A stretch of DNA of 64,000 nt from Limnothrix sp. RL_2_0 (GTDB taxonomy: Bacteria > Cyanobacteriota > Cyanobacteriia > Cyanobacteriales > MRBY01): contig JAAUPR010000014.1 in NCBI GenBank assembly GCA_012033055.1, forward strand, positions 1-64,000. Reading direction: 5' to 3'. The notes below the pieces were generated by a model. The model was not told where the DNA came from, searched no databases, and saw nothing but the letters and a program-made list of their open reading frames with translations. Each line of letters begins with the position of its first letter. The first letter of the stretch is position 1. Shown here one piece after another: positions 24,819-43,481 of this stretch. The translations under genes were made by a program, and so were the position numbers.

Positions 24819-27794
<2,976 letters not shown>

Positions 27795-37594: not shown

Positions 37595-38086
37595 ATGGCT
37601 GCTACGAATTCTTTTGATGTGGTGAGTGATTTTGATCGTCAAGAATTAGTAAATACAATTGATCAGGCAATGCGAGATATCAAGACTCGCTATGATCTCA
37701 AGGATACGAAAACAACGATTGAGTTAGGCGAAAATACCATCACAATTAATACATCTAGTGACTTTACCCTTGATGCAGTACAGACGATTTTAGTAACGAA
37801 AGCAATTAAACGTAGCCTCTCGCCAAAGCTTTTTGATTACGGCACGCCAGAGTCTGCTAGTGGGGGCAGAATTCGCCAAGAAATCACGTTGCGCAAAGGT
37901 ATCTCAAAGGATGATGCAAAGTTAATCACCAAGATGGTAAAGACCGATTTCAAAAAGGTTCAAGCTTCAATTCAAGGTGATTCTGTGCGGGTATCGAGCA
38001 AGTCAAAGGATGATTTGCAGGCGGCAATGCAGGCAATTCGTGAGCTAGATTTTCCGATGCCAATTCAGTTTAATAATTATCGTTAA
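37595..38086 (+). CDS. YajQ family nucleotide-binding protein
   Basis: 163 residues starting with [20 protein letters not shown] and ending with [24 protein letters not shown], the full YajQ/UPF0234 length and termini. The fold consists of two ferredoxin-like halves. Some family members bind cyclic di-GMP or tRNA/ATP; the role in cyanobacteria is unknown. The stop shares 4 bp with the convergent menA stop. Confidence 0.93.
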
Positions 38087-39033
38087 TAGCTGCCGGTAAT
38101 GCTCAAAAATGCTGGGTTATAGTAGGACAAAATGTAGGCGATCGCCAATAATATCCCGCTAAAAAAATGAAATTTGACCGCAAAAAATTTACTATTACTG
38201 ACCCTTTCTGGTTGGTCGTGGTGGGTACGAACATGGTTAATTAACTGAAAAGCAAAGGGGGCACTCCCAAAAGTGATGAGCATCCAAGGCGACCAAATGC
38301 CAAAAGCGATCAATCCACAGGTTAAGCCCACAACAACCACTAAGCTATAGGTTAAAATTTGTGCGCCCCGATAGGTTCCAAGGCGGACAATAGGGGATTT
38401 TTTACCGGCGGCGAGGTCGTCTTCTACTTGGTGAAAATGGGAGCAAAACAAAATAATACTAGTCGTGAGTGCAACCCAAACGGCTGAACAAAGCGCATTT
38501 ACGGATAAGCTGGCGGCTTGACTGTAGAACACGCCTAATGCAGTGATCACGTAAGCGATAAAACAGATAAATTCACCGATCCCCAAATATCCAAGGCGAA
38601 ATGGTGGCCCCTGATAGGTGTAGGCGATCGCCGCAGCAAGAGTCAGCAAACCCAATACAGTCCAATCCTGTTGCAAATAACTAATCAGGCCAATCCCTAC
38701 CATCCCCAGCAACAAAAATCCATTAGCAATCCAAAAAATCAAGTTACGATTTCCCGTCAGATTTACCACCGACGAAACCTTATTGACATCAATACCCGTA
38801 TCCGCATCAAACACATCATTACTTAAATTCATCCAAGCAATCATACAGATGGAGACCGCCAGAAAAATCCCAAAGCGCAGCCCATTGTAAAGACCCGTCT
38901 CCCCGTAAGCCGCAGCCGTTGCCACTATGACCGGCGTTATCGCTACGCTATAAATGGGCGGTTTAATCGCCGCGAACCAAAGTTTTTTACGAGAAGGTTC
39001 CGCAATAGAAGTCGGAGGATTTTCAGTAAGCAT
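38083..39033 (-). CDS. menA: MenA-type 2-carboxy-1,4-naphthoquinone phytyltransferase
   Basis: 316 residues from ATG 39033; a GTG at 39060 could add nine. A UbiA-superfamily membrane enzyme with about eight helices. The first Asp-rich motif is [14 protein letters not shown], and the second is [18 protein letters not shown]. In cyanobacteria this subgroup attaches phytyl to 1,4-dihydroxy-2-naphthoate to make phylloquinone, the A1 electron carrier of photosystem I. The [14 protein letters not shown] sequence is typical for MenA rather than the other prenyltransferases (plastoquinone, tocopherol, chlorophyll G). Confidence 0.93.
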
Positions 39034-39179
39034 ATTTTCTGAGAGAGGCAAATTCCTCACAAAAGTGTACCGTAACCTTTGCGGTTGAGCATTTTAGGAT
39101 TTGAATAAAATGAGCCTTCAATAATTGGCTGGTAAGAAGAAGGCATTGCTGAATTTTAGATTAGCTACTTACAACCAAT

Positions 39180-39206
39180 AAAAAAGAGGCTGATTTCAAC
39201 CTCTTT
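39180..39206 (-). terminator. Terminator of the Tyr/Glu-repeat gene
   Basis: On the minus strand AAAGAGG / CCTCTTT pairs with a TGA/TCA inner stem around one mismatch, then T6. It lies about 45 nt after the stop of the 39251 gene. Confidence 0.8.
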
Positions 39207-39250: not shown

Positions 39251-39592
39251 TTACATTTCTATACAGATTTCCTCTTCATAATATTCACCTGTCTCGGGAT
39301 CATAATATTCTTCAGATTCACAATATTCCTCAACGTAGTCATCATCATCATCTTCTACTACGTACTCTTCACAGACTTCTTCTGCGTAATATTCATCTGT
39401 TCCGGGATCATAATACTCTTCATATTCACAATATTCTTCGATGATCTCTGCTACTAATGTCTGAGGCGATCGCCCTGCCGATAATTCATCACTCTCTGGA
39501 GCCTTAGATTCTGCCGCCTGGTTAGGCAAAATTGAACAGGTCAAGGTTAAAGCGAGCGTTCCTGTTGCGATTAAGACATTTCGAAAAAACAT
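39251..39592 (-). CDS. Secreted acidic Tyr/Glu-rich two-repeat protein
   Basis: 113 residues. An N-terminal signal peptide (hydrophobic 6-22, cleavage likely near NQA|AES, residues 24-29). The mature chain is dominated by Glu, Asp and Tyr. Two near-identical blocks, residues 52-76 and 88-112 (period 36), share EEYC-x-x-EEYYDP-x-T-x-EYY-x-EE-x-C. Each has cysteines exactly 19 apart (C55/C74, C91/C110), separated by an Asp-run linker. It is exported, probably with disulphides. I know no family; calcium or metal binding, or a surface role, is possible. Followed by its own terminator. Confidence 0.8.
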   Translation of the reverse strand: MFFRNVLIATGTLALTLTCSILPNQAAESKAPESDELSAGRSPQTLVAEIIEEYCEYEEYYDPGTDEYYAEEVCEEYVVEDDDDDYVEEYCESEEYYDPETGEYYEEEICIEM

Positions 39593-39732
39593 GGATCAGA
39601 CCTTCCCATTTATACGAATAAGCTATGTTTCTTCAATAGTAAGCGAGAAAAATCATAAGCAAAATAAAGTTTCTGTTTAATCAATAAGTAAGTTTAACAA
39701 TACCTTCATGAGCAAAGTAGCTTTTGTTTTCG

Positions 39733-40785
39733 TTAACGATCTTCTAAAGCCAATTGAATAAGCTTATCGACAAGGTTATCGAAGGGAATGCCCGTATTTT
39801 TCCAAAGTTGAGGATACATACTTAGGGACGTGAAACCGGGGAGTGTATTAATTTCGTTAATCAGCACTTCGCCTGTTGCTTCCACATAGAAAAAATCTAC
39901 CCGACCAATGCCTGCACAATCGAGGGCTTGAAAGGCTTGAATGGCTGCTTCTTGAATTTTCTCGACAATATTTTCGGGTAAATCTGCCGGAATCTTCATC
40001 TGGGATTGACCGTCGGTATATTTGGTCTCGTAGTCATAAAAGTCGCTCTCAAAGGTGATTTCGCCCACCACCGATGCTTTGAGATTATCGTTACCCAGCA
40101 CGGCGCATTCTACTTCGCGGGCATTAACTCCGGCTTCGACAATGATGCGGCGATCGTATTTGGCGGCAAGATCAAGGGCTGCTTCGAGTTCGGCGCGGGT
40201 GCGCACTTTACTAATGCCGACGGATGAACCGAGATTGGCGGGTTTCACAAACATCGGGTAGTTGAGTTTTGCTTCGACGTTATCGCAAATTTTGGGGAAG
40301 ATGCAGGGGCTAGACCAGACTTCGGAACGTAATACGCCAACGTAATCGACTTGGGCTAATCCGGCTTGGGCAAAGATCATTTTCATGGCGAGTTTGTCCA
40401 TGCCTGCGGCGGAACCAAGGACGTTGCTACCGACAAATGGCTTTTCCATGAGGGTCAGTAGGCCTTGTAATGTGCCGTCTTCACCGTTGGGGCCATGGTT
40501 GATTGGGAACCACACGTCTATGCTGGGGGCTGCATCGGGGAACTGCCACCGCTGGGCGGGATCGACGGTTTCAGGTGCGTAGGATTTGCCTGTGTCGAGG
40601 ATGTTTTGGGAAAAGTCTGGGTCGTGCCAAATGCCGCTTTTGTCGATGTAAAAGGGGATTAGGTCGTATTTTTCGGGATTGTCGCCGATCTGGAAGGCTT
40701 TGGCGATCGCCTGAGCGGAGATGATCGAGACCTCATGTTCACCAGATTTCCCGCCGAAAAGTAACCCAACCCGTTGCTTTGCCAT
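39733..40785 (-). CDS. ddl: D-alanine--D-alanine ligase
   Basis: 350 residues from ATG 40785; the in-frame GTG at 40794 would add MAA. N-terminal [15 protein letters not shown] with the catalytic Glu (GEHEVS) and Ser loop, the ATP-grasp region with [19 protein letters not shown] (ATP Lys and omega loop), and C-terminal [21 protein letters not shown] with metal-binding Glu/Asn. It joins two D-Ala for the peptidoglycan pentapeptide. The VanX-like dipeptidase at 18547 would break the same product, so both must be separately controlled. Confidence 0.96.
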
Positions 40786-40814
40786 TGCTGCCACACCGTA
40801 AACATCGGCATTTA

Positions 40815-42626: not shown

Positions 42627-43481
42627 TTACGAACCAGAAGTACCCGCTGTTTCCGCCTTTGGACTACGGTCAGCAAGCAACGCATCTGCAACTTCCTTAT
42701 AAATCTCGATACCATACTGCTCCAGTACAACAACCGGAGAATTACGGCGGAAATCAACTCGCTTCACCTTTACCTGACCATTGGCGATCATGTCGCCGAC
42801 CTGTACATAGCGGCTAAATTCCTCGTTTGGAGCTTTCACCATGATGTTATCAACACCATTAAGCCGAATCACGCCAGTCACCTCGGTCTCCTCAGCCAGA
42901 GTTGCCTCCGGCAAAGTTGGTAACACAGGAGAAAAATCAAGTCCACCCGCACTTAAGGCATTAGCAGTGCCAGAGACGCTAGCAGCATTAGCATTCGCCC
43001 CATTATTTGCACTAGTAGTAGTAGCAGCAGTATTTGCGTTGGCTGCTGCTGTTGTTGCTGCCGCACGGGCCGCTGCCGCTCCACTACCATTCAAGCTACT
43101 TACCGCAGGGACATTTTGGACAGGAGCCGGTTCTGGGGGAGGTTCTGGGGCAAAGATTACTTGAGGGGTAATCGGAAAATCGGCGAATGGATCAGTACGA
43201 CCTTGGGCTGTCACTTTCCGTCTCGCATCAGCATCTGTTGAAGGGATAAAGACAGAGCCAGAAGCAACAGGAGTCAAAATATCGGAAGTTTCAGCGACTT
43301 CTTCGGCTGCAGCTTCGGCTTCTGGTGCTAATGCTGGAGGGATTGCGGGGGGTTGCCCTTCTCCACCGGCTTGGGGCTGCTCCGCAGGATCTTCTCCGCC
43401 ACCGCCACCAGGGAGTAATGAACAACTACCCAAGGTGAGACCTAGGGCGAGGACGGGAAAAAGAATGGGGTGTTTACGCAT
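42627..43481 (-). CDS. Lipoprotein with PilP-like C-terminal domain
   Basis: 284 residues. Signal peptide with lipobox LGSC (C20), then a Gly/Pro/Glu/Ala-rich linker, the short motif GRTDPFADFP (about 94-103), a long Ala/Asn/Thr low-complexity stretch (about 133-175), and a C-terminal beta-rich domain (about 195-270: EVTGVIRLNGVDNIMVK; VQVGDMI; VVVLEQYGIEIY). That order (lipobox, DPF, small beta domain) recalls PilP of type IV pilus assembly, but the match is too weak to call. Low-complexity Ala codons are GCA/GCT/GCC-rich. Confidence 0.7.
   Translation of the reverse strand: MRKHPILFPVLALGLTLGSCSLLPGGGGGEDPAEQPQAGGEGQPPAIPPALAPEAEAAAEEVAETSDILTPVASGSVFIPSTDADARRKVTAQGRTDPFADFPITPQVIFAPEPPPEPAPVQNVPAVSSLNGSGAAAARAAATTAAANANTAATTTSANNGANANAASVSGTANALSAGGLDFSPVLPTLPEATLAEETEVTGVIRLNGVDNIMVKAPNEEFSRYVQVGDMIANGQVKVKRVDFRRNSPVVVLEQYGIEIYKEVADALLADRSPKAETAGTSGS

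What the first reader, a model, noticed from the sequence alone, without database searches (positions are those of the whole stretch)
39251..39592. Secreted protein with two Cys-Tyr-Glu repeats of period 36
After a signal peptide, the chain is essentially two copies of EEYC-EEYYDP-T-EYY-EE-C with cysteines spaced 19 apart in both. The composition (Glu, Asp, Tyr, four Cys, no Lys in repeats) is extreme and I know no family with this. Dense Tyr/Glu could chelate metals, form a redox or dityrosine crosslinked surface layer, or coat a mineral. It has its own terminator, so expression is independent.
Basis: seen in the sequence. Interest (0 to 1): 0.65.

Follow-up and report, generated by a model that had tools for sequence, protein, structure and literature searches.

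The report
Orphan secreted protein, two Cys-clasped hairpins
A cyanobacterium carries a small, extremely acidic, probably exported protein made of two near-copies of a cysteine-clasped beta-hairpin, whose core almost spells the designed mini-protein chignolin, and no relative of it was found in any collection searched.

Summary
On the MINUS strand, 39592-39251 encodes 113 aa: an export-signal-like N-terminus, a linker, then two 29-residue repeats 36 residues apart (19/29 identical; best of 2000 shuffles 15). The Cys pairs (55/74, 91/110) are 19 apart in both. Predicted mature charge is about -33. Silent changes exceed amino-acid changes between the repeats (dS 0.88, dN 0.22), so the protein reading seems to be under selection.

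No family, solved structure, plasmid, phage or viral contig matched, and no sampled cyanobacterial genome did, including the five others held from its genus. An exact motif scan of 84,980 species found nothing else.

New here: AlphaFold2, given only this sequence, builds each repeat as a beta-hairpin (pLDDT about 90 at the core) in a register that puts its two cysteines opposite each other. The core YYDPETGEYY is 8/10 identical to the chignolin variant CLN025 (YYDPETGTWY). The host has a VKOR-thioredoxin fusion that could form disulfides.

Best explanation: an exported, lineage-specific, polyanionic protein of two disulfide-clasped hairpins that binds cations or a positively charged partner. 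The fold is fairly well supported; the function is inference. The locus differs in all five relatives, suggesting a rearranged site and a young gene.

The parts
39251..39592 (-). CDS of the orphan protein, 113 aa, ATG start, TAA stop at 39253-39251
   Evidence: composition and repeat statistics; dS 0.88 versus dN 0.22 between repeats
39512..39592 (-). signal-peptide-like N-terminus, residues 1-27 (MFFRN-VLIATGTLALTLTCSIL-PNQAA); cleavage site uncertain; Cys19 is not in a canonical lipobox (Thr at -1)
   Evidence: read directly from the sequence; no signal-peptide program was available
39449..39511 (-). linker, residues 28-48, low AlphaFold confidence (disordered-like)
39356..39445 (-). hairpin 1, residues 50-79, Cys55 and Cys74 facing each other, turn D62-P-G-T-D-E67
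   Evidence: AlphaFold2 strands 51-62/67-78 and 50-62/67-79; register sum 129 puts C55 opposite C74
39329..39355 (-). acidic spacer, residues 80-88 (EDDDDDYVE)
39257..39328 (-). hairpin 2, residues 89-112, Cys91 and Cys110 facing each other, turn D98-P-E-T-G-E103; core YYDPETGEYY
   Evidence: AlphaFold2 strands 89-98/103-112 in both models; register sum 201
39601..39607 (-). Shine-Dalgarno-like GGGAAGG, 8 bases before the ATG
   Evidence: sequence
39183..39206 (-). intrinsic-terminator-like stem-loop followed by a T-run
   Evidence: 1 found, 0.7 expected by chance

Best explanation
A lineage-specific protein, exported to the periplasm, cell surface or thylakoid lumen. After cleavage of the signal peptide it consists of a flexible linker and two beta-hairpins, each closed by a chignolin-like DPxTx turn between paired tyrosines and clasped by one disulfide (C55-C74, C91-C110) made by the host's VKOR-thioredoxin oxidase. 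The disulfide holds a strand pair that would otherwise be pushed apart by Glu/Asp repulsion, so the hairpins display dense carboxylates and tyrosines. The most likely function is binding of hard cations (Ca, Mn, Fe(III)) or of a cationic partner at the cell envelope. Sequence, repeats, composition and absence of relatives in the searched collections are shown; the fold is predicted; disulfides, export and function are inferred.
For: Repeat far above chance. Excess of silent over replacement changes between repeats (Fisher p 0.035). Two AlphaFold2 runs, full length and mature, give the same two hairpins and register, with pLDDT block means of about 90 around the hairpin cores. Cysteines fall exactly opposite each other in both, at what should be a non-hydrogen-bonded pair, the site favoured for cross-strand disulfides (established knowledge). 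Repeat 2 core is 8/10 identical to CLN025 YYDPETGTWY (sequence from PMC10444755); 0 of 20000 shuffles reach 8. Mature charge about -33, pI about 4. Host VKOR domain (E 5e-34) in a 330-aa ORF that also carries a WCPHC thioredoxin-type motif.
Against: AlphaFold2 ran on one sequence with no alignment and may have seen chignolin-type structures; pTM is only 0.25-0.26, so the hairpins are not predicted to pack together. The chignolin resemblance was noticed after the fact. Export rests on reading the N-terminus by eye. No expression, disulfide or ligand data. Cation binding is inferred from composition only. The dS/dN test rests on 21 differences.
Confidence: 0.45

Rival explanations
1. Polyanionic decoy: an exported acidic protein that soaks up cationic peptides or proteins (antimicrobial peptides, bacteriocins) or mimics a polyanion.
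For: Charge about -33 in 86 residues, no positive residue after Arg41; lineage-specific distribution as expected of conflict-related genes.
Against: No defence or bacteriocin gene was recognised next to it; the neighbours are menA-like, ddl and glcF-like housekeeping genes (named by reading).
Confidence: 0.15
2. Structural or cross-linked surface protein: tyrosines are oxidised to dityrosine or the chains are disulfide-polymerised into a coat.
For: 13 Tyr in 65 residues, in facing pairs (Y60/Y69, Y61/Y68, Y96/Y105, Y97/Y104).
Against: The strong negative charge opposes packing without cations; only two repeats; each Cys already has an intrachain partner in the model; no oxidase next to it.
Confidence: 0.12
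3. A recent or de novo ORF with little or no function, created by duplication of a GAA/TAT/GAT-rich stretch at a rearrangement breakpoint.
For: No relative anywhere searched; the menA-like and ddl genes that flank it are apart in all five same-genus genomes; unusually skewed composition.
Against: Silent changes exceed replacements between repeats (dS 0.88, dN 0.22); conserved Cys, turn and register in both copies; Shine-Dalgarno-like site and signal-like N-terminus.
Confidence: 0.2
4. A secreted peptide precursor whose two repeats are cut into two copies of a disulfide hairpin peptide that acts outside the cell.
For: Two near-identical cysteine-clasped units separated by an acidic spacer after a signal-like region.
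Against: No protease, transporter or modifying enzyme recognised nearby; no dibasic or other clear processing site between repeats; known hairpin peptides of this sort are mostly cationic, this one is strongly acidic.
Confidence: 0.08

Closest known systems
Chignolin / CLN025 (designed 10-residue mini-protein, PDB 5AWL)
   Same: YYDPETGEYY of repeat 2 matches YYDPETGTWY at 8 of 10 positions; same predicted turn, and the two Tyr pairs face each other as Y1/Y10 and Y2/W9 do.
   Different: Natural, longer, closed by a facing Cys pair, Trp replaced by Tyr, highly acidic. Chignolin is an artificial peptide, so common descent is not implied.
Disulfide-clasped beta-hairpin peptides (tachyplesin, protegrin type; from general knowledge)
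   Same: Hairpin closed by cross-strand cysteines; small and exported.
   Different: Those are cationic membrane-active peptides; here the charge is about -33, with one Cys pair per hairpin and two hairpins per chain. No sequence relation tested or claimed.
CBM_14, peritrophin-A chitin-binding domain (PF01607)
   Same: Only Pfam profile listed, with Cys and aromatic residues in loosely similar order (E 0.12, 12.9 bits).
   Different: Far below the 22.1-bit cut-off; as generally described it has six cysteines in three disulfides, which this protein lacks.
AFFinger p17 (3wkn chain E, PDB entry)
   Same: Contains YDPETGTW / YYDPETGTW stretches that align to the turn.
   Different: E 1.8; only the short turn matches. 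An engineered construct by its name (my reading).

Membership tests
CBM_14 / peritrophin-A (PF01607) | profile score at or above Pfam's curated cut-off | tested here: not met
   12.9 bits against 22.1
CBM_14 / peritrophin-A (PF01607) | six conserved cysteines per domain | tested here: not met
   four Cys in the whole mature chain
Chignolin-like beta-hairpin (fold class, not a homology family) | DPxTx turn with facing aromatic pairs on two antiparallel strands | tested here: met
   sequence and two AlphaFold2 models; predicted, not measured
Disulfide-clasped beta-hairpin | two cysteines directly opposite each other across the strands | tested here: met
   register sums 129 and 201 put C55/C74 and C91/C110 opposite; predicted, not measured
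Disulfide-clasped beta-hairpin | the disulfide is actually formed | not testable with these tools
   host has a VKOR-thioredoxin fusion, which only makes it possible
Sec-exported protein | signal peptide with n-, h- and c-regions and a cleavage site | tested here: inconclusive
   read by eye: MFFRN, 17 mostly hydrophobic residues, PNQAA/ESKA; no predictor was available
Bacterial lipoprotein | lipobox with Ala, Gly or Ser just before the Cys | tested here: not met
   T-L-T-C19: Thr at -1 (sequence)

The most novel reading that the evidence does not exclude
A young, lineage-specific bacterial gene that has arrived at a minimal autonomous fold: a natural disulfide-clasped chignolin-like hairpin, used twice as a polyanionic cation-binding module outside the cytoplasm.
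Probability: 0.25. Interest if true: 0.65.

Novelty: new variant of a known kind. Interest (0 to 1): 0.42.

Why it matters
If right, it is a natural counterpart of one of the most studied designed mini-proteins, and shows how a new gene can gain a stable fold with very few residues by adding one disulfide across a strong turn. The single repeat is about 29 residues, so the fold claim is cheap to test by synthesis and NMR. It would also be a compact polyanionic scaffold for studying cation binding. If only the sequence claim holds, it is one more orphan exported protein with unusual composition.

Tried and rejected
Known family: Pfam, NCBIfam, PHROGs and PDB sequence searches negative. CBM_14 rejected (below cut-off, too few Cys). 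Paralogues in the own genome: two weak matches (E 0.08 and 0.22); the first is a DprA-like frame without the motif, both taken as chance. Relatives by protein, repeat profile and DNA motif: none. Structure search in PDB: best E 0.57, TM at most about 0.25, meaningless for isolated hairpins. RNA element or DNA tandem array in place of a protein: no Rfam match, no tandem array over the gene at score 30. A TATAAA box at 39609-39614 with TTGAAG 16 bases further up was considered as a promoter and set aside, since transcription would start inside the Shine-Dalgarno-like site.

Full report
What is there. The stretch 39251-39592 encodes a 113-residue ORF on the minus strand. The window is cyanobacterial (it carries an ApcE-type phycobilisome linker at 25116-27794, by reading) and belongs to a 4.1 Mb genome held with five others of the same genus. 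The protein starts with a signal-like stretch MFFRN-VLIATGTLALTLTCSIL-PNQAAESKA, continues with a linker and ends in two repeats: EIIEEYCEYEEYYDPGTDEYYAEEVCEEY (residues 49-77) and DYVEEYCESEEYYDPETGEYYEEEICIEM (85-113). They are 36 residues apart and share 19 of 29 residues. In 2000 shuffles of residues 28-113 the best such self-match was 15. The predicted mature chain carries about -33 charges.

Is it a gene. Between the two repeats there are 7 silent changes over 13.5 silent sites and 14 replacements over 73.5 sites, dS 0.88 and dN 0.22 (Fisher p 0.035 on rounded counts). So the repeats seem to have been kept for the protein they encode since they duplicated. A Shine-Dalgarno-like GGGAAGG lies 8 bases before the ATG, and a terminator-like hairpin about 45 bases beyond the stop, the latter not above chance. 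Promoter-like sites are at chance level, so co-transcription with the upstream ddl gene, which ends 140 bases away on the same strand, is possible.

Where it is found. Nothing related in the five other same-genus genomes even at E 10, in 60 relatives, in about 380-390 genomes of the class by motif and by repeat profile, in plasmids or phages, viral contigs or the contigs of 84,980 species. The bare core YYDPxTxx[YF]Y without the cysteines is also absent from 60 relatives. An exact motif is strict, and diverged relatives could escape it; the profile and protein searches cover that only for the class. Sister strains of the same species were not available, and metagenomes were not searched.

The locus. 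In the window the gene lies between a menA-like gene (38083-39060) and ddl (39733-40794). In all five relatives those two genes are far apart or on different contigs; alignment of the window to them stops at both edges of this intergenic stretch. The site is therefore a rearrangement point, and the orphan has no counterpart beside either gene in the relatives.

The fold. AlphaFold2 on the single sequence gives strands 51-62/67-78 and 89-98/103-112, with block pLDDT about 90 around the hairpin cores and low values elsewhere. A second run on residues 28-113 gives the same pairs (numbering shifted by 27). In this register C55 faces C74 and C91 faces C110 (sums 129 and 201). Counting from the turn, where D62/E67 should be a hydrogen-bonded pair as in chignolin, the cysteines fall on non-hydrogen-bonded pairs, which is where cross-strand disulfides fit best (established knowledge; not measured). 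The core YYDPETGEYY is 8/10 identical to CLN025, YYDPETGTWY (PMC10444755); no shuffle of 20000 reached 8. The comparison was made after a weak PDB match to a YDPETGTW stretch drew attention to it, so it is a lead that the models then supported, not an independent test.

How it may work. The host encodes a VKOR domain in an ORF that also carries a thioredoxin-type WCPHC motif, the type of enzyme that makes disulfides outside the cytoplasm. The clasp would hold together strands rich in Glu, leaving carboxylates and tyrosines exposed. Binding of hard cations, or of a cationic partner, is the simplest use of such a surface. This last step is inference from composition.

Verdict. Observation confirmed; 'no known family' supported; function open. 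The report adds a testable fold, a reason for the cysteine spacing, and evidence that the gene is lineage-specific and sits at a rearranged site.

Noticed in passing
38083-39060 and 39733-40794: menA-like and ddl genes flank the orphan here but are apart in five same-genus genomes, so this intergenic stretch is a rearrangement breakpoint.
   Followed up: partly
42627-43481 (-): Lipoprotein-like ORF with a clear lipobox (LGSC) and a long Ala/Asn/Thr-rich low-complexity middle; its N-terminus (LALGLTLGSCSLLPG) loosely resembles that of the orphan (LALTLTCSILPN).
   Followed up: no
window, 73-aa ORF beginning MTNIQQQIEKERQAAREVCSTDGTSGECAA: A CP12-like ORF (by reading), the second most Glu/Asp/Tyr-rich ORF of the window.
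   Followed up: no
L008 (G004:C1:2682556-2683596): One same-genus genome carries a second, 44% identical ddl-like gene about 3.7 kb from its menA-like gene.
   Followed up: no
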